A stretch of DNA of 52,803 nucleotides, taken from NCBI GenBank assembly GCA_015484845.1, contig WFUT01000041.1, positions 1 to 52,803 on the forward strand. Direction: 5' to 3'. Below, one piece after another: positions 1 through 8,390 of the stretch (its first letter is position 1; each line of letters starts with the position of its first letter). A program made the position numbers and the translations under genes. The notes below the pieces were generated by a model. That model made no database searches. It had not been told where the DNA came from and was given only the letters and a program-made list of their open reading frames with translations. Origin of the DNA: Desulfobulbaceae bacterium (GTDB taxonomy: Bacteria > Desulfobacterota > Desulfobulbia > Desulfobulbales > Desulfobulbaceae).

Positions 1-64
1 ATTGCTGAAATGCTGCAGCGCCAGGGCCGGGATCCCGGCCCTGGCGCTGCAGCATTTCAGCAAT
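1..64. repeat. 64-bp perfect palindrome at the window edge
   Basis: Bases 1-64 equal their own reverse complement exactly, centred on CCGGGATCCCGG. The right arm (33-64) is the natural coding sequence of the dehydratase gene; the left arm mirrors it. A 64-bp perfect inverted duplication with no loop inside a coding region, exactly at the window edge, is most simply a fold-back assembly or amplification artefact at a contig end, though a real inverted repeat cannot be excluded. Confidence 0.95.
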
Positions 65-277
65 GAGCAGGGCCCCGGCCTGGAACACGGCCTCGCAGAG
101 CAGCACCCCGGGCATGATGGGATGGCCCGGGTAATGGCCGCGAAAGAGATCCAGGTCAGCGGGGATCGTCTTTTCAGCCCTGATCCGCTCCTCCCCAAGC
201 TCCAGGACCCGGTCCAGCCAGAGAAAGGGCGGCCGGTGCGGGATGCGGGCAAGGATCTCCTCGGATACCCGGGTCAT
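1..277 (-). CDS. FabZ/FabA-like 3-hydroxyacyl-ACP dehydratase, cut by the window edge
   Basis: Partial gene; only the N-terminal part is present and no stop is reached. The start ATG overlaps the stop of the ketoreductase gene (TGATG), indicating translational coupling. The protein opens with the hotdog-fold signature: IPHRPPFLWLDRV near residues 12-23, then GHYPGHPIMPG with the candidate catalytic His48, and LLCEA with Glu62, matching the His/Glu pair of FabZ. It should dehydrate 3-hydroxyacyl-ACP made by the neighbouring ketosynthase and ketoreductase. Residues encoded left of about base 33 are unreliable because the DNA there is the mirror arm of a perfect palindrome. The Cys before Glu62 and the operon context suggest a pathway-specific enzyme rather than the housekeeping FabZ, but that is inference. 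Confidence 0.8.
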   Translation of the reverse strand, partial: MTRVSEEILARIPHRPPFLWLDRVLELGEERIRAEKTIPADLDLFRGHYPGHPIMPGVLLCEAVFQAGALLIAEMLQRQGRDPGPGAAAFQQ

Positions 278-1017
278 CACAAGCCCCCGGTGATCTCCAG
301 CACCGAGCCGGTGATGTAGGCGGCGCCGGGTCCGGCCAGGAAGAGCACGGCCTCGGCCACCTCGTCGGGCCGGCCGAAGCGGCGCATGGGCACGAGTTTC
401 CTGTACTCCTTCACCTGCGCTTCGCCCAGGCCCTCCAGGAAGTCGGTATCGATGAAACCCGGCGAGACGCAGTTGACCGTGATGCCGCGCCTGGCCACCT
501 CCCTGGCCAGGGACTTCATCATCCCTACCTGGCCTGCCTTGGAGGCCGCGTAGTTGGCCTGGCCCGCAAACCCCATGTGGGCCATGGGCGAGGTGATGAA
601 CAGGATGCGGCCATAGCGCTGCTTGAGCATCAGGGGTACGGCAAAGCGGCTCATGTGGTAGCCGCCGGTGAGGTTGACATCCAGGACTCGCTGCCAGTCC
701 GACGGGGCGAGCAGGGCCAGGACACCGTCCCGCCGGATGCCGGCATTGTTGACCAGGATATCGAGCGTCTCGTGCCGCTCTTCGACATCCTGGTAAAAAC
801 GCTGCACGGCCTGGTAATCACTCACGTCCAGGGCGTGCAGCTCCAGCCGGTCACCATGCCCGGCGCAATACCGGCGGCACTCTTCGGCCCCCTCCCGGTT
901 GCCACCGTAGATCCCGATCACCAGGGCGCCCGCCTCGAGCAGGGCCCGGGTAATGGCCCGGCCGATGCCACGGGTGGCGCCGGTGACAATGGCCTTTTTT
1001 CCGTTGAAATCCCTCAT
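277..1017 (-). CDS. FabG-like 3-oxoacyl-ACP reductase (SDR family)
   Basis: A 246-residue short-chain dehydrogenase/reductase. It has the cofactor motif TGATRGIG at residues 12-19, the NNAG motif at 90-93, Asn115, Ser143, and the YAASK box with Tyr156 and Lys160; Ser-Tyr spacing is 13 as in FabG. It ends ITGSVLEITGGL, typical of FabG. The likely reaction is NADPH-dependent reduction of 3-oxoacyl-ACP to 3-hydroxyacyl-ACP in the cytoplasm. I chose the ATG before RDFNGKK because GAGAGAG sits just upstream and the SDR fold begins there; the reading frame is open 26 codons further upstream, but without sequence resembling the family. The gene overlaps the dehydratase start downstream, and follows a CrtI-like oxidoreductase by about 86 bases. 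Confidence 0.9.
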   Translation of the reverse strand: MRDFNGKKAIVTGATRGIGRAITRALLEAGALVIGIYGGNREGAEECRRYCAGHGDRLELHALDVSDYQAVQRFYQDVEERHETLDILVNNAGIRRDGVLALLAPSDWQRVLDVNLTGGYHMSRFAVPLMLKQRYGRILFITSPMAHMGFAGQANYAASKAGQVGMMKSLAREVARRGITVNCVSPGFIDTDFLEGLGEAQVKEYRKLVPMRRFGRPDEVAEAVLFLAGPGAAYITGSVLEITGGL

Positions 1018-1103
1018 CGACTCTCTCTCGAATAAACCGAACCGGCCGGACCAGGTTGCCGGCGCTGAACCCCGGGCTTCACACCCGATACCCAAAACCC
1101 TCT

Positions 1104-2510
1104 TCAGCTCCGCAGGTGCGCATCCACGTCATTGGCCACGATGACACCGTAGTTGATGGCCCCGAGCCAGCCGCTCATGATGATCCCCACCGAGCCGACG
1201 TGGAACAGGCCCGCCACCTCGCGGAAGATGGAGCGCGAGATGTCCAGCCCCTCGAACTTGGTGCCGAACGAGGTGCCACGGGTGTGCAGGGTATAGCGGT
1301 GAAAGGTCTTTGGTGTTGCCGACTCGATGGTGTCGATCTTGTCCCGGATCCCGGGGATGTAGCGCTCCAGGTCGTCCAGGCAGCGCTCCACCATGGCCTC
1401 CTTGGCCCGGGCGTACTCCTCTCCCTCCAGGGTGGCCCAGTCCCCGTAGTTGGCGTTCATGGAGGCGACAACCGTGTAGTCGGGACGCTGCGGCCTGGTC
1501 TTGGGGTAGTAGACCGAGAAGGTCCGGCTCCTGGTCTCCATGTCCCGCATCTCCTCGGAGGAGAAGACCGGCGAGGTGGAGGTGAAGAGGAGATCGCCCA
1601 CGTCACCGAACGACTCGCCCCTGCGGATGCCGAGATAGACCTGGCAGCTCGAGTTGTTGACCTGGACCCGGTCGAATCCGGCCAGGAAGTCGTCGGAAAA
1701 GGCGTCCCGGCCGGCCAGGTTGTCGATGGTGTTGGTGATGCCGGCATTGGAGACCACGGCCGGGGCCGCGATCACCCGCTCGCCCACGGCCACGCCCCGG
1801 GTCCGGCCCTGCTCGATGACGATCCGGTCGACCCGGGCCGAGGTGACGATGGTGACGCCGTTCTTCTGCAGCTCGTCGGCCATCATGCCAATCAACCGGT
1901 CGGTACCGCCCTGAAAGGTGTAGACCCCCCGGTTCATGAAGTTGGAAAACACGATGCCGTAGGTGATGGCCGGGTCGTCCAGGGTGGAGCCGTTGGCATA
2001 GGTGATGGGCTCCATGAGCAGCCGGTGCACGTCGCTGCGGCCGGGAAAGAACTCCTCGAACAGCTCGCGGGTGGTCATGGTCCGGTCGTCGTAGAAGTTC
2101 ATCCCGGCCACGGTGGCAAAGAACCGCTCCACAGTGGCCGGGTCAACGCCAAAACTCCGGTCCAGGATGCGGACAAAATCGTCGCGGCTGAAGGTGGTGG
2201 TCAGCGAGAACTGGGGGTTGTCGAACACGATGTTGGGAAGCTGGACAATGGCATCACGGATCTCGCGCGTCCAGTACTTGCGGCAGGTCTTGACCATGCC
2301 GTAGGGAAAGCCGTGCAGGGAGACATCAAAGATATGGCCGTTGCGCGTGAACCAGGTGGCCAGGCCGCCCAGGCGATGGTGATGCTCCAGGAGCAGGACC
2401 CGGTGTCCTGCCCGGGCCAGGCGGTTGGCACAGGTAAGGCCGCCCAGGCCGGAACCGACCACGATAACGTCGTAGCGGTCGCTGACCTTGTCCAGGGGTG
2501 TAAACGCCAT
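1104..2510 (-). CDS. CrtI/phytoene desaturase-like FAD-dependent oxidoreductase (second copy)
   Basis: A 468-residue flavoprotein. A Rossmann dinucleotide-binding motif VVGSGLGGLTCANRLARAG lies near residues 17-36 with the acidic strand end LLLEHHHRLGG after it, as in phytoene desaturases, carotenoid isomerases and retinol saturases. The C-terminus has GLFHVGSVGIIMSGWLGAI, resembling the FAD-contact segment of that superfamily. It is only distantly similar to the adjacent flavoprotein by eye and is not a recent tandem duplicate. In an operon with acyl carrier protein and ketosynthase, the substrate is more likely a conjugated acyl chain than a carotenoid; no phytoene synthase or other carotenoid gene is nearby. 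Desaturation, saturation and cis-trans isomerisation cannot be told apart from sequence. The start ATG is preceded by GAGAG. Confidence 0.85.
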   Translation of the reverse strand: MAFTPLDKVSDRYDVIVVGSGLGGLTCANRLARAGHRVLLLEHHHRLGGLATWFTRNGHIFDVSLHGFPYGMVKTCRKYWTREIRDAIVQLPNIVFDNPQFSLTTTFSRDDFVRILDRSFGVDPATVERFFATVAGMNFYDDRTMTTRELFEEFFPGRSDVHRLLMEPITYANGSTLDDPAITYGIVFSNFMNRGVYTFQGGTDRLIGMMADELQKNGVTIVTSARVDRIVIEQGRTRGVAVGERVIAAPAVVSNAGITNTIDNLAGRDAFSDDFLAGFDRVQVNNSSCQVYLGIRRGESFGDVGDLLFTSTSPVFSSEEMRDMETRSRTFSVYYPKTRPQRPDYTVVASMNANYGDWATLEGEEYARAKEAMVERCLDDLERYIPGIRDKIDTIESATPKTFHRYTLHTRGTSFGTKFEGLDISRSIFREVAGLFHVGSVGIIMSGWLGAINYGVIVANDVDAHLRS

Positions 2511-2638
2511 GGTACTCTCGGTTCGCCGGAGATGTGGTGCGGAGACGGACCGGCTCCGACGCTCTGCCGGCCTGTCCCCTGGTCGCGGGCCACCTCGGCA
2601 TGGCCCGACATCGCGGTCCGCTCACGAGCCGGTCGCGA

Positions 2639-4018
2639 TCATGATCCCAAAAGATGCTGATTGACGATGGTCACCCCGCTGAGCATGGCGCCGACAATGC
2701 CGAGGTAGCCCTGGTCGGTGCCGGCAATGAACAGGTTGGGCCAGGGGGTACGGCCGTCCCTGATCTTGCGGGGACTGCCATAGACCGCGCCCTCGGCCTT
2801 GGCGGTGAACCGCTCGATGGTCAGAGGGGTGAAGCTATCCTGATATACAATGTCCGCGGGAGAATTCCCAATGATTTTCCCTGCCGCGGCAAGGGATTTC
2901 GCCGACCAGCGCTCCTTGGCCCGCCGGTAGTCGTCATCCTCCAGCCGCTGCCAGAGTTCGTAATTGGCAGCGTTGGTCACCCGCACCTGGGCCGGATCGG
3001 CGGCCTCCAGGCCCTGGAAGTTGCCGGGAAAACAGATCACGCCCCAGGAGACATCGAGCAGGTCGTCCGGCCGCTGGTAGGAAAAGGTCGGCTCCAGGTT
3101 GTAGAAGAAGATGGTCCGGTCGTGGCGCAGCTCCGCCATGCTCCGGGCCGGCACCAGGGCGATGGTCTCCATGAAACTCATCCGGCCGGTGTGGGCCGCC
3201 ACGTCCAGGTCCCAGCCCGCGAGCCGGGCCGTGCCCGGGATCCCCACCGTGGAGAGGACCGCGTCGCCGCTGATCTCCTCGCCGTCGGCGAGGACCACGC
3301 CCGCCACCCGGTCGTGCCGGCGGATGATGGAGGCCACCGGGCTCTGAAACCGGATCTCGCCGTCAAAGCGCCTGAACTGGGCCACCAGCATGTCGAGGAA
3401 GTCGCGGATCGTGCCCTGGGGCCGGAAGAAGCCGTCCTGGAACACGGCCCGGAACATGATCACGAACTGGCCCAGGTCCATGTCATGCTCCTCGGCATTG
3501 CCATAGACCATGAGCGGCAGCAGGAGCATGTCCTCGAGCAGGGGTTCGGCCAGGATGGATGAGAGGAACTCCCGGGTCGAGCGCCAGGGCGCGGGCGCAA
3601 AGGGATCATAGGCGTCCACCGCGCGCACCAGCCTGGCAAAGCGGTCCATGCAGCCGGGAAAGGCGGCGGCGATCCCGGCCTCGAGCAGGGAGAAATCATT
3701 GCTGAAGGCGAGGCGGAGCTGGGGAAAGACGATCTCCGAGCCGATCTGCTCGTGGGTGACAAAGGCGCGCCGCGAGAGCTTGAGCTGGCGGAAGAGCCGG
3801 TTGAGCGGGGCCCGCTTGTCGCCAATGGCCGCGAAGTTGGTCATGGCGTGCAGGCCGGTCTCCAGGAGAACCCCCCTGCGGTGGTAGTAGGAGTTGAGAC
3901 CGCCGGCAACGGTGTGCTGTTCGAGGATAAGGGTCCTGCGGCCGAAACGGGCCGCGCGGATACCGGCGGCGAGCCCGGACAGGCCGCAACCGATGATGAT
4001 GAGCTGATAGTCAGCCAT
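2639..4018 (-). CDS. CrtI/phytoene desaturase-like FAD-dependent oxidoreductase (first copy)
   Basis: A 459-residue flavoprotein with an N-terminal dinucleotide-binding motif IIIGCGLSGLAAGIRAARFG (residues 7-26), followed by LILEQHTVAGGLNSYYHRRG, the layout of phytoene-desaturase-like NAD(P)/FAD oxidoreductases. The C-terminal NLFIAGTDQGYLGIVGAMLS closes the FAD site. It lies between the acyl carrier protein gene (about 68 bases upstream) and the second CrtI-like gene (about 128 bases downstream), all on the same strand. Presence of two divergent members in one operon suggests two redox or isomerisation steps on a polyene acyl chain. It has no signal peptide, so it should act on carrier-bound substrate in the cytoplasm. 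The ribosome-binding site is weak. The exact reaction is unknown. Confidence 0.85.
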   Translation of the reverse strand: MADYQLIIIGCGLSGLAAGIRAARFGRRTLILEQHTVAGGLNSYYHRRGVLLETGLHAMTNFAAIGDKRAPLNRLFRQLKLSRRAFVTHEQIGSEIVFPQLRLAFSNDFSLLEAGIAAAFPGCMDRFARLVRAVDAYDPFAPAPWRSTREFLSSILAEPLLEDMLLLPLMVYGNAEEHDMDLGQFVIMFRAVFQDGFFRPQGTIRDFLDMLVAQFRRFDGEIRFQSPVASIIRRHDRVAGVVLADGEEISGDAVLSTVGIPGTARLAGWDLDVAAHTGRMSFMETIALVPARSMAELRHDRTIFFYNLEPTFSYQRPDDLLDVSWGVICFPGNFQGLEAADPAQVRVTNAANYELWQRLEDDDYRRAKERWSAKSLAAAGKIIGNSPADIVYQDSFTPLTIERFTAKAEGAVYGSPRKIRDGRTPWPNLFIAGTDQGYLGIVGAMLSGVTIVNQHLLGS

Positions 4019-4086
4019 GCCTGGACCGGGCGGCTGCCCGAGGCGGCCGGAGCCGCCCGCAGCCTTGCGCGATCACGTCGCAGTGA

Positions 4087-4338
4087 TCAGGCGTCTTTGA
4101 GCCTGGGCTCGAGGTAGTTGACACAGGATGTCAGGGTGGCGAGCTGCGGATACTCCTCCTCCGGGATCTGCAGCTTGTAGCGCTTGCGCAGCTCCATGAC
4201 GATGTCGAGAAAATCCATGGAATCCAGGTCCAGCTGGTCACGCAGCGGCGCATCGGGGTCAAGCTGGTCGAACTCGGCCTCTTCGTCAATATCTTCAATT
4301 ATTTCAAGGATCATATCCTTGATTTCGTCCCGGGTCAT
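4087..4338 (-). CDS. acyl carrier protein of the lipid/polyketide-like operon
   Basis: An 83-residue acidic protein with the phosphopantetheine attachment motif LDLDSMDFLDIV; Ser40 is the expected modified residue. The remainder fits a four-helix carrier fold (MTRDEIKDMILEIIEDI at the start, YKLQIPEEEYPQL after the serine). AGAGGA stands five bases before the ATG. It is unlike the usual housekeeping AcpP, whose motif is normally DSLDTVELVMALE, so it is probably dedicated to the neighbouring ketosynthase, ketoreductase and dehydratase. A GC-rich inverted repeat occupies part of the 127-base gap to the upstream ketosynthase gene. Confidence 0.92.
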   Translation of the reverse strand: MTRDEIKDMILEIIEDIDEEAEFDQLDPDAPLRDQLDLDSMDFLDIVMELRKRYKLQIPEEEYPQLATLTSCVNYLEPRLKDA

Positions 4339-4396
4339 ACAGTCCTCTATACCATCTCGCGCGGCTGTCGCAGCACCATTTCATGCATCGCAATCA

Positions 4397-4420
4397 CCCC
4401 GGCCGGGGGCCGGGCCGGGG
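4397..4420. repeat. GC-rich inverted repeat between ketosynthase and ACP genes
   Basis: The arms CCCCGGCC and GGCCGGGG pair perfectly across an 8-base loop in the non-coding gap between the two genes. On the transcribed (minus) strand no U-run follows, so it is not a good intrinsic terminator. It could stabilise the mRNA end or set differential expression of the carrier protein, but no function is shown. Confidence 0.5.
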
Positions 4421-4465
4421 GAACACCAGAATATTGCAAAATCGTCTAACGTAGCATAGCTTTTC

Positions 4466-5719
4466 TTACTTTGCCACAAATCTCTGCACAATAACAACAG
4501 AATTGATGCCGACCATGCCAAAGGAGTTGTTGAGGATCGTCTCCACCCGCTCCATGCGGCGGGGCGTGCCGATCACCAGGCCCGGCAGCGCGCAGTCGGG
4601 ATCAAGATGATCGATGTTGATGGTCGGGTGGACCAGGTTGTCGGTGAAGGAGGGCAGGTTGCCGGCCAGCTCCAGCACGCCGGCCGCGCCCATGGCATGG
4701 CCGATCAGGGACTTGGTGTTGTTGACAGCGGTCTGCGGACAGTCGGCGAACAGCTCGCGGATGCCGCGGCACTCCTCGACATCGCCCTGGCGGGTGCCGG
4801 TGGCGTGGGTATTGAGGATGGAGATGTCGGCCGGCGCAAGCGAGGCCCGCTCCAGGGCCATGCGCATGCACTCGGTCTGGCGGGGGCCATGGGGAAGGAC
4901 GAAATCGCGGGCATCGGAGTTCATGGAGTAGCCAACGATCTCGCCGTAGATCCGGGCGCCGCGGTCCAGGGCGCGGTCGAGCCGCTCCAGGGTGAAGACG
5001 CAGCCGCCCTCCGAGATGACGATGCCGTTGCGGTCCCTGTCCAGGGGCCGGCTGGCGCGGGTCGGGTCCGGGTGTTCGGCCAGGGCGCCCTGGGCGCGGA
5101 AACTGGCAAAGATGCCAAACGAGCCCACGCACTCGGAGATACCGCCGCAAAGCGCCAGGTCCACCTCGCCCAGGCGCAGCATCTGGCAGCCCTGGATCAG
5201 GGCCGCGTTGCCGGCGGCGCAGGCCGCACCCACCGAGTAGTGGGGCCCGGTGATCCCGAGGTTCATGGTGATCTCGCCGGCAGGGTTGTTGAGCACGGTG
5301 CGGGGATTGTGGTGGTGGGTCCAATAGTCGACGTTGTAGTCGAACCGGGAGATGTTGTAGACCTCGTTCTCGGTCTCCACGGTGCCATGCTCGGTAAGGC
5401 CGATATAGACCCCGGTCCGGGCCCGGTCGTAGCCGGAAAAATCGATGCCCGCATCCAGCAGGGCCTCGTTGGCGCAGTAGACACCGATGCAGCCGGCCCG
5501 GGTACCGCGCTTGTTCTCTTTTTTCTTGCGGTACCTGGTCTCGGCAAAATCGCAGATCCCGGCCGGCGCCGTGCCCATGTAGCGCAGCTCGATGGTGGAG
5601 ATACCGCTTTCACCGGCCAGGAGCCGGCGCCGGAACTCGGCGAGATCATTGGCGCCGCCGGGCGCGGTCAGGCCAACGCCGGTGATGACGATCCGTTCTC
5701 TTGGCAGAGTCTGCATCAT
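4466..5719 (-). CDS. beta-ketoacyl-ACP synthase (FabF-like)
   Basis: A 417-residue thiolase-fold condensing enzyme with the complete Cys-His-His catalytic set: Cys167 in SVGAACAAGN, His305 in NTHATGT and His341 in KSLIGHAMGAAG, very close to the positions in FabF. It should condense acyl and malonyl units on the downstream carrier protein. The ATG ATG pair at 5714-5719 has GGGAGAAGG directly upstream and follows the alaS stop by 16 bases; an earlier in-frame ATG at 5761 would overlap alaS and lacks a ribosome-binding site. A Lys/Arg-rich stretch (RYRKKKENKRGTR, residues 62-74) and the HHH run near residue 136 are unlike housekeeping FabF, suggesting a specialised branch such as those in polyene or ladderane-like clusters. 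Confidence 0.9.
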   Translation of the reverse strand: MMQTLPRERIVITGVGLTAPGGANDLAEFRRRLLAGESGISTIELRYMGTAPAGICDFAETRYRKKKENKRGTRAGCIGVYCANEALLDAGIDFSGYDRARTGVYIGLTEHGTVETENEVYNISRFDYNVDYWTHHHNPRTVLNNPAGEITMNLGITGPHYSVGAACAAGNAALIQGCQMLRLGEVDLALCGGISECVGSFGIFASFRAQGALAEHPDPTRASRPLDRDRNGIVISEGGCVFTLERLDRALDRGARIYGEIVGYSMNSDARDFVLPHGPRQTECMRMALERASLAPADISILNTHATGTRQGDVEECRGIRELFADCPQTAVNNTKSLIGHAMGAAGVLELAGNLPSFTDNLVHPTINIDHLDPDCALPGLVIGTPRRMERVETILNNSFGMVGINSVVIVQRFVAK

Positions 5720-5735: not shown

Positions 5736-8390
5736 TCATCCGGCCAGCAGTCGGCCGACAATCCCGGGCACGGCCGCCATGGCCTCGGGCAGCCTGTCGG
5801 CCATGGGACCGCCGGCCTGGGCCATGTCCGGCCTGCCGCCGCCCTTGCCGCCGACCAGGGCCGCCACCTGGCGGACCACGTCGCCGGCCCTGATCCGGTC
5901 GGTGAGATCCCTGCTCACCAGGGCGAGCAGGGCCGCCTTGCCCTTGAACTCGCCGCCCAGGACCGCAACGCCGCTGCCCATCCGGTCCCGCACCCTGTCC
6001 CCCACCTCGCGCAGGGTTTTGGGCGAGTCCAGGGCAACCGTGCCGGCAATGACCCGCACGCCGTCGACCTCGGTGGCGCCGGCCAGCAACTGGTCAAGAT
6101 CCGAGAGGGCCATGGCCGCACCCAGTTGGGCGATCTCGCCCTCCAGCTCCTTCTGTCGCCGCAGCAGGGCCCGTACTTTCTGCGCAGCGTCGGCCAGGGG
6201 TCCGGAGAGGACCTCGCTCACCGCGTCCGCCTGGCGGGCCAGCTCCTGGACCCAGGCAACGGCCGCCTCGCCGGTCACGGCCTCGATGCGGCGCACGCCG
6301 GCGGCTATGCCGCTCTCGGAGACGATCTTGAAAAACCCGATATCCCCTGTGGCCGCGGTATGGGTACCGCCGCAGAGTTCCTTGCTGAACCCTTCGATGC
6401 TCACCACCCGCACCCGGTCGCCATACTTCTCGCCGAACAGGGCCGTGGCCCCCTCGGCCATGGCCTGCTCCCGGTCGAGGACCGCGGTCTCGACCCTGGT
6501 GTTGCGCCTGATCTCCCGGTTGACCAACTGCTCGATGGCCGTGATCTCCTCCGGGGTGAGCGGCGAGAAATGGGTGAAGTCAAAGCGCAGCCGGCCGTGC
6601 TCCACCAGGGAACCGGCCTGCTTGACATGATCGCCCAGGACCTGCCGCATGGCCGCATGCAGGAGATGGGTCGCGGTATGGTTCAGGGCCGTGGCCCGGC
6701 GCCGGCTCTCGGCCACGGCCAGTTCCACCTCCTGGCCCGTCCGCAGCCGGCCCTCGACCAGCACGCCCTCGTGCAGGACCAAGCCGTCGGCCACGCTCCT
6801 GGTCTCCTCGACGCTGAAGCGCCCGCCCGGCCAGCGGATCTCGCCCCGGTCGCCGACCTGGCCGCCGGACTCGGCATAAAACGGTGTCCGGGGACAGAAG
6901 AGACGCAGCCGCTGGCCCGTCCCCTCGGCCTCCGCCACCAGGTCGCCCCCGGCATCGATGATGCCCTCGACCGTGGAACGGTCCTGCAACCGGTCGTAGC
7001 CGGTGAACTCGGTCCGGCGTCCCTGTTCGAGCAGGGTGGCAACGCCGGCATCGAGGTGGTCGACATCGGTTCCCTTCCAGGACTTCCTGGACTGTTGCCG
7101 CTGTGCGGCCATGGCCTGTTCGAAACCGGCCTCGTCCAGGCCGATCTCCTGTTCCAGGCAGACATCCCGCACGATATCCACTGGAAAGCCATAGGTGTCG
7201 TAGAGCCTGAAGATGAAGTCACCGTCGATGACAAGCCGGTCGCCGCCCCGGCGCCGCAGCCGGTCGATCTCCTCGGAGAGCATGGCCAGGCCATGGTCCA
7301 GGGTCTCGCCGAACCGCTGCTCCTCGTTGGTCACCACCTTGGCCAGGAGCTCGCGGGCATCGGCGAGATGGGGATAGGCCTCCTGCATCCGGTCCACCAC
7401 CAGGGCGCAGACCGGGGCGAAGAAGGAGCCCAAGCCCAGGCTGCGGCCAAAGCGGATGGCCCGGCGCATGATCCGGCGCAGGACATAGCCGCGGCCCTCG
7501 TTGGAGGGCAGGACACCGTCGGCGACCAGGAAGGTGGTGGCCCGGGCGTGATCGGCAATAACCCGCATGGCCACGTCATCGGCAGGGCTTGCGTGGTAGG
7601 GCCTGCCGGAAAGGGTGGCGATGTGCTCGATGAGGGGGGCAAAGAGATCGCAGTCAAAGTTGTTCAGCTTGCCCTGCATGACCGCGGCGATCCGCTCCAG
7701 GCCCATGCCGGTGTCGATGGAGGGCTTGGGCAGCGGCGTCATGGTGCCGTCCTCGTCGCGGTAGAACTGCATGAAGACCAGGTTCCACAGCTCCAGGAAC
7801 CGGTCGCAGTCGCAGCCCACGGCACAGTCGGGCCGGCCGCAGCCGGCCTCCACGCCCTGGTCGATGTGGATCTCCGAGCAGGGACCGCAGGGCCCGGTGT
7901 CGCCCATGGCCCAGAAATTCTCCGATTCCCCGAGCCGCACGATCCGGCCCTCGGGCAGGGTCTCGACCTGCTCCCAGAGCGCGTAGGCCTCGTCGTCCTC
8001 CCGGAAAACCGAGACCCAGAGCTTCTCCGGGTCCAGGCCCAGCTCGACGGTCAGAAATTCCCAGGCAAACCCGATGGCCTCTTTTTTGAAATAGTCGCCA
8101 AAGGAAAAATTGCCCAACATCTCGAAAAAGGTATGGTGCCGGGCCGTATGGCCCACGTTTTCAAGGTCGTTGTGCTTGCCGCCGGCCCGGACGCAGCGCT
8201 GCGAGGAGGCGGCCCGCACGTAGTCCCGCTTCTCCTCGCCCATGAAGACCCGCTTGAACTGGACCATGCCGGCATTGGTGAAGAGCAGGGTGGGATCATC
8301 GTGGGGCACCAGGGAGGAGGACTCGACAATGGTGTGGCCACGGTCGGCAAAATACTGCAGAAAACGTTTTCGAATCTCGTCAGCTGTCAT
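5736..8390 (-). CDS. alaS: alanyl-tRNA synthetase
   Basis: An 884-residue class II synthetase, close to the usual 875-880. It starts MTADEIRKRFLQYFADRGHT and carries the motif-2 region FEMLGNFSFGDYFK, the editing-domain zinc motifs HTATHLLHAAM (near residue 570) and CGGTH (near residue 670), and a C-terminal glycine-rich segment GGKGGGRPDMAQAGG typical of the C-Ala/DHHA1 domain. It charges tRNA-Ala and clears mischarged Ser/Gly. Unusually, the specialised ketosynthase gene follows its stop codon by only 16 bases, so the whole lipid-like operon may be read through from this housekeeping gene. It follows the isochorismatase-like gene by 64 bases, a gap containing phased heptamer repeats. Confidence 0.97.
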   Translation of the reverse strand: MTADEIRKRFLQYFADRGHTIVESSSLVPHDDPTLLFTNAGMVQFKRVFMGEEKRDYVRAASSQRCVRAGGKHNDLENVGHTARHHTFFEMLGNFSFGDYFKKEAIGFAWEFLTVELGLDPEKLWVSVFREDDEAYALWEQVETLPEGRIVRLGESENFWAMGDTGPCGPCSEIHIDQGVEAGCGRPDCAVGCDCDRFLELWNLVFMQFYRDEDGTMTPLPKPSIDTGMGLERIAAVMQGKLNNFDCDLFAPLIEHIATLSGRPYHASPADDVAMRVIADHARATTFLVADGVLPSNEGRGYVLRRIMRRAIRFGRSLGLGSFFAPVCALVVDRMQEAYPHLADARELLAKVVTNEEQRFGETLDHGLAMLSEEIDRLRRRGGDRLVIDGDFIFRLYDTYGFPVDIVRDVCLEQEIGLDEAGFEQAMAAQRQQSRKSWKGTDVDHLDAGVATLLEQGRRTEFTGYDRLQDRSTVEGIIDAGGDLVAEAEGTGQRLRLFCPRTPFYAESGGQVGDRGEIRWPGGRFSVEETRSVADGLVLHEGVLVEGRLRTGQEVELAVAESRRRATALNHTATHLLHAAMRQVLGDHVKQAGSLVEHGRLRFDFTHFSPLTPEEITAIEQLVNREIRRNTRVETAVLDREQAMAEGATALFGEKYGDRVRVVSIEGFSKELCGGTHTAATGDIGFFKIVSESGIAAGVRRIEAVTGEAAVAWVQELARQADAVSEVLSGPLADAAQKVRALLRRQKELEGEIAQLGAAMALSDLDQLLAGATEVDGVRVIAGTVALDSPKTLREVGDRVRDRMGSGVAVLGGEFKGKAALLALVSRDLTDRIRAGDVVRQVAALVGGKGGGRPDMAQAGGPMADRLPEAMAAVPGIVGRLLAG

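What the first reader, a model, noticed from the sequence alone, without database searches (positions are those of the whole stretch)
1..5719. Specialised acyl-carrier operon with two CrtI-like flavoproteins: candidate polyene or ladderane-like lipid pathway
Ketosynthase, dedicated ACP, two divergent phytoene-desaturase-like oxidoreductases, ketoreductase and dehydratase are arranged in one strand, with coupled ends. Motifs are intact (KS Cys167/His305/His341, ACP Ser40, KR Ser143/Tyr156/Lys160). No carotenoid gene is near, so the flavoproteins probably act on acyl-ACP. From memory, comparative work on anammox bacteria linked similar clusters (FabF, ACP, FabG, FabZ and phytoene-desaturase homologues) to ladderane lipid proposals and noted a related cluster in the sulfate reducer Desulfotalea psychrophila. 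The product here is unknown, and the operon is cut at base 1.
Basis: partly seen in the sequence, partly recalled or inferred. Interest (0 to 1): 0.75.

Follow-up and report, generated by a model that had tools for sequence, protein, structure and literature searches.

The report
Operon for polyunsaturated membrane hydrocarbons
A bacterium related to sulfate reducers carries one operon that couples a small dedicated fatty-acid module, with two carotenoid-enzyme-like flavoproteins, to the four known genes that join two acyl chains into a long hydrocarbon, which points to an oxygen-free way of making highly unsaturated hydrocarbons without the giant enzyme used by the known producers.

Summary
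The genes are real and intact, on the minus strand. The cut end was recovered: contigs C101 and C198 of the same genome overlap the window's left end and add the rest of the dehydratase, a FabI-like reductase, a DUF1232 protein and oleA, oleB, oleC, oleD. Ole enzymes join two acyl chains into an olefin, so the best reading is a dedicated type II acyl module feeding a long, probably polyunsaturated hydrocarbon (C31:9-type), not a ladderane. Support: the core is syntenic in class relatives and in Planctomycetota, Opitutae, Chloroflexi and Nitrospinota loci; CrtIb genomes also have OleA in 188 of 198 (class) and 65 of 66 (Planctomycetota); 178 of those 188 show no PfaA-like match at E<=1e-150; no phytoene/squalene synthase was found. 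Desulfotalea psychrophila is published to make C31:8 and C31:9 without a PUFA polyketide synthase. KS and CrtI of an anammox-type cluster are only 26-32% identical and fall outside the clades. Against: this genome also has PfaA-like genes elsewhere, and no product was measured. The boldest, unproven step: CrtIa and CrtIb as the two double-bond isomerases that PUFA synthases need.

The parts
4466..5719 (-). module ketosynthase (KS), 417 aa, Cys167/His305/His341
   Evidence: fabF TIGR03150 291.4 bits, cut-off 493.75 not reached; own clade 100/100
4087..4338 (-). dedicated acyl carrier protein, 83 aa, Ser40
   Evidence: (PF00550)
2639..4018 (-). CrtI-like flavoprotein a (CrtIa), 459 aa
   Evidence: (PF01593)
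1104..2510 (-). CrtI-like flavoprotein b (CrtIb), 468 aa; the better conserved of the two
277..1017 (-). FabG-like ketoreductase (KR), Ser143/Tyr156/Lys160
33..280 (-). N-terminal part of the FabZ-like dehydratase (DH); continues on contig C101 (L008:4064-4468, minus)
   Evidence: fabZ TIGR01750 95.2 bits, fabA TIGR01749 25.1 bits
1..64 (.). perfect 64-base palindrome at the contig end, taken as an assembly artefact; the true continuation is C101 (ER, DUF1232, OleA, OleB, start of OleC) and C198 (rest of OleC, OleD)
5736..8390 (-). alaS, 16 bases upstream of KS; neighbour, probably not part of the pathway

Best explanation
The operon makes a long, highly unsaturated hydrocarbon. A dedicated type II set (KS, ACP, KR, FabZ-like DH, FabI-like ER, with malonyl-ACP and starter from housekeeping FAS) builds an unsaturated acyl-ACP of about C16; CrtIa and CrtIb set its double bonds; OleA condenses two such chains, OleD reduces the beta-keto acid, OleC closes a beta-lactone and OleB decarboxylates it to the olefin. 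With two 16:4 chains the product is C31:9, a hydrocarbon published for Desulfotalea psychrophila. Shown here: gene content, intact catalytic residues, synteny, co-occurrence, clade structure. From established knowledge: the OleABCD chemistry. Inferred: the handing of the chain from ACP to OleA, the polyunsaturation, the chain length, and what the two flavoproteins do. For these I favour redox-neutral 2E-to-3Z and 2E-to-2Z enoyl-ACP isomerisation over oxidative desaturation (about 0.45 against 0.35 if the pathway reading holds, the rest something else).
For: OleABCD continues the operon on C101 and C198. OleA passes the cut-off of the KASIII family NF006720 (438.8 against 285 bits), and its 12 PDB matches at E<=1e-30 are KASIII entries that I recall as Xanthomonas OleA. 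OleD is nearest 2-alkyl-3-oxoalkanoate reductase (378.9 bits, next other family 137.4). Full-length OleC of a same-genus genome is nearest a fatty acid CoA ligase family and the two olefin beta-lactone synthetases. Synteny: 10 of 19 fetched relatives have the module and OleABCD on one strand; KS-ACP-CrtIa-CrtIb in order in 47 of 51 loci of the named collection with enough upstream DNA. Co-occurrence of CrtIb and OleA (both/CrtIb only/OleA only/neither): class 188/10/14/45 of 257, Planctomycetota 65/1/41/187 of 294; OleA in 23 of the 25 genomes with the more distant CrtIb. No PfaA-like match at E<=1e-150 in 178 of the 188. Published: D. psychrophila makes C31:8 and C31:9, has CrtI-like DP2405 and DP2406 and no PUFA polyketide synthase (PMC2649909). 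C31:9 is predicted to come from two 16:4 n-3 through OleABCD (PMC4882568).
Against: No product measured for this organism. Its own genome has two PfaA-like matches (761.7 and 572.7 bits, under the 1010.1 cut-off), so a polyketide synthase could also supply polyenes here; 9 more of the 188 have such a match, and the strict threshold may miss broken or distant ones. 10 of 198 CrtIb genomes of the class lack OleA (one of them, G168, over 90% complete), 14 have OleA without CrtIb, and 41 Planctomycetota have OleA without CrtIb. In several Planctomycetota genomes OleA lies far from CrtIb (e.g. G576, G437). D. psychrophila's own genome was not identified in the sets I examined. OleC and OleD stay under the strictest Ole cut-offs. 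Co-occurrence counts are not corrected for shared ancestry, and 27 of the 45 double absences come from one family, f7.
Confidence: 0.7

Rival explanations
1. Same pathway, but CrtIa and CrtIb are anaerobic acyl desaturases that oxidise a saturated or mono-unsaturated chain (the proposal of Rattray et al. 2009).
For: Fold closest to gamma-carotenoid desaturase 4rep (CrtIb Z 34.1; first Foldseek rank for both); Rattray et al. argue this from gene content and isotopes.
Against: Needs an electron acceptor; with a low-potential menaquinone, oxidation of unactivated C-C bonds is uphill (general knowledge, not tested). The FabI-like reductase and a FabZ- rather than FabA-type dehydratase in the operon fit double bonds kept during elongation at least as well.
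Confidence: 0.25
2. OleABCD is fed by ordinary fatty acids or by a Pfa-like polyketide synthase, and the CrtI module makes a separate lipid that merely shares an operon.
For: PfaA-like genes occur in this genome; Shewanella-type marine producers and, by proposal, Geobacter use Pfa or Pfa-like synthases with Ole; 41 Planctomycetota have OleA without CrtIb.
Against: PfaA-like matches in only 13 of 257 genomes of the class (E<=1e-150) and 2 of 29 others (E<=1e-100), while CrtIb and OleA co-occur in 188 and 65 genomes.
Confidence: 0.12
3. Ladderane-like or other cyclobutane lipid pathway.
For: FabF/ACP/FabZ/CrtI gene types shared with anammox clusters (PMC2649909).
Against: KS and CrtI of two anammox-type clusters are 29-32% and 26% identical and outside the module clades; no radical SAM gene among the 12 genes; D. 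psychrophila had no ladderanes.
Confidence: 0.03
4. Carotenoid-related operon.
For: CrtI fold; weak CrtISO/CrtD profile matches.
Against: No phytoene/squalene synthase family match in the genome (same search positive in 7 of 14 control genomes); the tree puts three annotated carotenoid enzymes outside both clades.
Confidence: 0.01

Closest known systems
OleABCD head-to-head olefin pathway (Xanthomonas, Shewanella)
   Same: OleA, OleB, OleC, OleD in one operon with catalytic residues kept
   Different: preceded by an eight-gene set (KS, ACP, two CrtI-like, KR, DH, ER, DUF1232) instead of relying on housekeeping FAS alone
Pfa plus Ole route to hentriacontanonaene C31:9 (Shewanella; proposed for Geobacter bemidjiensis)
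   Same: dedicated acyl machinery for a polyene joined to OleABCD
   Different: discrete type II proteins and two CrtI-like flavoproteins in place of multidomain Pfa proteins and their FabA-like dehydratase domains
Desulfotalea psychrophila FAS clusters with DP2405/DP2406 and C31:8/C31:9 hydrocarbons (Rattray et al. 2009)
   Same: phytoene-dehydrogenase-like genes with consecutive tags among FAS clusters; hydrocarbon product measured; relationship to this lineage is recalled
   Different: the paper's main text has no hit for OleA, olefin or head-to-head; it cites C32 acid decarboxylation; orthology with this module was not checked by sequence
Anammox ladderane candidate cluster kuste3603-3608
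   Same: ACP, FabZ, FabF and a CrtI-like gene together
   Different: 26-32% identity for KS and CrtI, a second divergent FabF, a radical SAM gene (as published), no OleA in genomes with that kind of CrtI

Membership tests
OleABCD olefin pathway | OleA-type thiolase with Cys-His-Asn | tested here: met
   NF006720 (named 3-oxoacyl-ACP synthase III) 438.8 bits over cut-off 285; C123/H271/N301 in 36 of 36 rows, 1 dropped; PDB matches recalled as Xanthomonas OleA
OleABCD olefin pathway | OleB alpha/beta hydrolase of haloalkane-dehalogenase type with Asp and His | tested here: met
   best NCBIfam matches haloalkane dehalogenases, none over its cut-off; D107/H267 in 31 of 31 rows, 3 dropped; third triad residue not checked
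OleABCD olefin pathway | OleC beta-lactone synthetase | tested here: inconclusive
   same-genus full-length copy scores 522.5 against the synthetase cut-off 900; passes broader NF006754 with 620.1 over 478; own copy split over two contigs
OleABCD olefin pathway | OleD 2-alkyl-3-oxoalkanoate reductase | tested here: inconclusive
   nearest family by far (378.9 bits, next other family 137.4) but under cut-off 580; Tyr140/Lys144 in 38 of 38 rows, 4 dropped
OleABCD olefin pathway | olefin product | not testable with these tools
   needs lipid analysis
Pfa PUFA synthase | multidomain PfaA in the operon | tested here: not met
   operon genes are single-domain-size; PfaA-like matches lie on other contigs, C76 and C164
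Anammox ladderane cluster | orthologous KS and CrtI-like gene | tested here: not met
   29-32% and 26% identity; separate clades
Anammox ladderane cluster | radical SAM enzyme in the cluster | tested here: not met
   none among the 12 genes
Carotenoid desaturase CrtI/CrtISO | over curated family cut-off | tested here: not met
   best family carot_isom: CrtIa 68.2 and CrtIb 103.1 bits against 586.9
Carotenoid desaturase CrtI/CrtISO | phytoene synthase in the genome | tested here: not met
   0 matches to PF00494 in a 97% complete assembly
Housekeeping FabF | over curated fabF cut-off; groups with own FabF | tested here: not met
   291.4 against 493.75 bits; 35% to own FabF; separate clade 100/100

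The most novel reading that the evidence does not exclude
CrtIa and CrtIb are flavin-dependent enoyl-ACP isomerases, one making 3Z and the other 2Z double bonds, so that a discrete type II fatty-acid system makes methylene-interrupted tetraenes with neither oxygen nor a Pfa polyketide synthase. This module, found in at least five phyla, would be the general precursor source for polyunsaturated hydrocarbons in Pfa-free bacteria. The arithmetic fits: 16:4 (4,7,10,13) needs, per three elongations, one 2E-to-3Z and one 2E-to-2Z isomerisation and one full reduction, and the operon holds two isomerase candidates and one reductase.
Probability: 0.3. Interest if true: 0.9.

Novelty: new variant of a known kind. 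Interest (0 to 1): 0.72.

Why it matters
Polyunsaturated hydrocarbons such as C31:9 are explained in the known producers by the large Pfa synthase, yet D. psychrophila was reported to make them without it, and the 2009 paper left the pathway open. A conserved, ole-linked module of ordinary-sized enzymes makes that question testable in culturable strains. It would add an oxygen-independent route to polyunsaturated chains, a possible new flavoenzyme reaction, and a genomic marker for polyunsaturated-hydrocarbon producers in anoxic waters and sediments. It also separates this system from the ladderane problem, with which it was tied in 2009.

Tried and rejected
Ladderane reading: tested with the anammox-type clusters L182 and L183 and rejected. 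Carotenoid reading: tested with PF00494 and with plasmid-borne annotated Crt genes, rejected. Housekeeping FAS: rejected. Strictly 'Pfa-free organism': rejected for this genome, which has PfaA-like genes on C76 and C164; kept only as a statement about most relatives at the threshold used. Structure did not decide desaturase against isomerase: the best match is a carotenoid desaturase, while the P. acnes fatty-acid isomerase 2b9w appears at rank 38 with Z 23.8, no better than amine oxidases. PDB sequence searches of ACP, DH, CrtIa and CrtIb gave general family members; entries that I recall as anammox structures (7qv0, 8ayb, 7auf) did not rank first. The listing of the rest of the window showed no gene that I could tie to the pathway; those proteins were not searched against families.

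Weak points of counts: CrtIb-positive means E<1e-100 in the class and E<=1e-60 in Planctomycetota (G515 and G558 are fragments); OleA-positive means E<=1e-60 and E<=1e-50. Lists of genomes without a match are cut; the rest were deduced from the tallies, and the sets were typed by hand into. The search for PfaA scored only two candidates per genome. In one search rows were dropped before counting when coverage was 0.8 or less, identity under 38%, or the row over-long or interrupted (3 ER, 6 KS, 1 ACP, 6 DH, 2 KR, 1 OleA, 3 OleB, 4 OleD), and some genomes are in twice because unnamed and named collections overlap (e.g. L056 and L072). Some locus tallies include weak 21-24% OleC matches; the '>=1 Ole gene' counts (32 of 55; 10 of 25) use only those at 40% or more. 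Long branches make the exact place of the carotenoid and anammox rows unsure. L190 is called anammox-type only because it falls in the same weak-match group. In L182 and L183 the ACP and the ORF at the place of the radical SAM gene were named by eye and by gene order, not by a family search. For OleB of L050 no family was listed because the limit was E 1e-50.

Literature: of PMC2649909, parts 1-4 of 7 were read and passages of the rest seen; only passages of PMC7064751, PMC3098273, PMC6463001, PMC4790861, PMC9702510, PMC4882568, PMC7158056, PMC5673642 and PMC10176705 were seen; the two Sukovich 2010 papers are not held and may mention ole genes of Desulfotalea. No listed paper linked a CrtI/FAS module to ole genes in searches, which cover the held open library only; listings, not full texts, were judged for most.
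Full report
What is in the window. The window is the whole contig C41 of a 3.38 Mb genome in 233 contigs. On the minus strand, 16 bases after alaS, lie KS (4466-5719), ACP (4087-4338), two CrtI-like flavoproteins (2639-4018, called CrtIa; 1104-2510, called CrtIb), a FabG-like ketoreductase (277-1017) and the start of a FabZ-like dehydratase. Only KR and DH overlap; the other gaps are 68 to 128 bases.

What lies beyond base 1. Bases 1-64 are a perfect palindrome, which I read as an assembly artefact. Contig C101 (4,470 bases) overlaps window 20-225 at 97% identity and continues on the same strand with the rest of the dehydratase, a FabI-like protein, a DUF1232 protein, an OleA-type thiolase, an alpha/beta hydrolase and the first part of an AMP-forming ligase. 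The end of contig C198 overlaps the start of C101 inside that ligase and adds its end and an OleD-type reductase; beyond it the ORFs look like ATP synthase subunits (by eye). A same-genus genome (G024) has KS (cut by the contig start) to OleD on one contig, L050. So the operon is KS-ACP-CrtIa-CrtIb-KR-DH-ER-DUF1232-OleA-OleB-OleC-OleD.

Why this is an olefin operon. OleA passes the cut-off of its KASIII family, and its PDB matches at E<=1e-30 are twelve KASIII sequences (that these are Xanthomonas OleA is recalled). OleD is nearest the curated OleD families and OleC near the curated OleC families, though under the strict cut-offs. Catalytic residues are invariant in the aligned rows: OleA 36 of 36, OleB 31 of 31, OleD 38 of 38 (1, 3 and 4 rows dropped). 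In the published pathway OleA condenses two acyl chains, and OleD, OleC and OleB turn the product into an olefin; clusters without oleB make beta-lactones (PMC7064751 passages). OleB is present here.

Why the upstream module belongs to it. Of 19 relatives' stretches, all have KS, ACP, CrtIa, CrtIb in order; 10 have OleABCD behind it on the same strand, L063 has OleA-OleC, two (L058, L064) have ole genes on the other strand, and six show none in the stretch, though OleA was found elsewhere in the genomes of all six. In the two loci that I read of the kind with ole genes on the other strand, what looks like a Tol-Pal cluster lies between (by eye). A scan of named genomes kept the best 80 loci (cap; more exist): 55 at 68-82% identity, many titled Desulfobulbaceae, Desulfobulbus or Desulfocapsa and others only Deltaproteobacteria, Pseudomonadota or bacterium; and 25 at 59-64%, titled Planctomycetota groups, Opitutae, Chloroflexi/Dehalococcoidia, Nitrospinota, Muiribacteriota, two Deltaproteobacteria and one only bacterium. 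KS-ACP-CrtIa-CrtIb is in order in 47 of 51 of these with enough upstream DNA; exceptions are L117 (CrtIa in two pieces), L125, L130 and L131. With at least 4 kb downstream, DH follows in 65, KR in 53 and ER in 36 of 66. An ole gene at 40% or more lies in the fetched locus in 32 of 55 and 10 of 25.

Co-occurrence. In the window's class, 257 genomes: CrtIb and OleA both in 188, CrtIb alone 10, OleA alone 14, neither 45 (Fisher p 5e-28, not corrected for ancestry). Sampled members of f7 (27 of 27), f10, f11, f12 and f14 lack both. In 294 Planctomycetota: 65, 1, 41, 187 (p 1.4e-35). Of the 25 genomes with the more distant CrtIb, 23 have OleA; G266 and G267 do not. PfaA-like matches at E<=1e-150 occur in 13 of 257 genomes (one over the family cut-off), 10 of them among the 188, including the window's own genome, on contigs C76 and C164; and at E<=1e-100 in 2 of 29 genomes reached through loci. 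In the single-contig genome G069 the match lies in a 2,710-residue ORF. So in this organism a polyketide route cannot be excluded, but in most carriers none was found at these thresholds.

What the flavoproteins are. CrtIa (28 rows) and CrtIb (31 rows) each form one clade with full support, apart from three annotated carotenoid enzymes and four anammox-type rows. No phytoene/squalene synthase family member was found in the genome. AlphaFold models are confident (mean pLDDT 90.1 and 91.7) and closest to gamma-carotenoid desaturase 4rep. A fatty-acid isomerase, 2b9w, shares the fold (rank 38; that it is flavin-dependent is recalled), which shows precedent and nothing more.

Not ladderane. L182 and L183 carry ACP-FabZ-FabF-FabF-CrtI and then an ORF at the place of the radical SAM gene, the order published for kuste3603-3608 (PMC4790861 passages). 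Their KS are 29-32% and their CrtI 26% identical to ours and fall outside the module clades. None of the 18 Planctomycetota genomes with only weak CrtI matches (25-29%) has an OleA match.

How it probably works. C31:9 is predicted to come from two 4,7,10,13-hexadecatetraenoyl chains through OleABCD (PMC4882568 passages). In prokaryotic PUFA synthases FabA-like dehydratase domains are reported to make the cis double bonds by 2,2- and 2,3-isomerisation (PMC9702510, PMC4882568 passages). Counting back from 16:4, my own arithmetic gives one 3Z isomerisation, one 2Z isomerisation and one full reduction per three elongations. The operon has a FabZ- and not FabA-type dehydratase, one FabI-like reductase with Tyr155 and Lys162 kept in 50 of 50 rows and an invariant Ile145 where, from memory, E. 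coli FabI has Tyr146, and exactly two unassigned flavoproteins. That is why I favour the isomerase reading, as inference. Oxidative desaturation, as proposed in 2009, stays a close rival.

What is known and what is new. Known: OleABCD; ole genes in Proteobacteria, Planctomycetes, Verrucomicrobia, Chloroflexi and Actinobacteria (PMC7158056 passages); C31:8 and C31:9 with CrtI-like genes and no PUFA polyketide synthase in D. psychrophila, with a novel anaerobic PUFA route suggested (PMC2649909). New here, as far as the listings of the held open library show: the physical and statistical linkage of a KS-ACP-CrtIa-CrtIb-DH-ER module with OleABCD across phyla. The verdict is a new variant of a known kind, with a mechanistic step that could be novel.

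Noticed in passing
window 1-64: Perfect palindrome at the contig end; likely a chimeric assembly end, so the first ~32 bases should not be used.
   Followed up: yes
L149 (G000:C76) and L150 (G000:C164): Two PfaA-like polyketide synthase pieces in the same genome on separate contigs; in G069 (L151) the match lies in a 2,710-residue ORF.
   Followed up: partly
L008:3046-3270 minus: A 74-residue DUF1232 protein sits between ER and OleA; a similar gene was seen in 10 of 55 closer and 0 of 25 more distant loci.
   Followed up: no
L008:3267-4067 minus (enoyl reductase P0006), residue 145: Invariant Ile (50 of 50 rows) at a FabI position recalled to be Tyr146 in E. coli.
   Followed up: partly
L108:12764-17241 and L058:10106-14670: In these two loci what looks like a Tol-Pal gene cluster lies between the module and the ole genes (named by eye).
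   Followed up: no
G229: One genome of the class has OleA and PfaA-like matches but no strong CrtIb match: a possible natural swap of precursor source.
   Followed up: no
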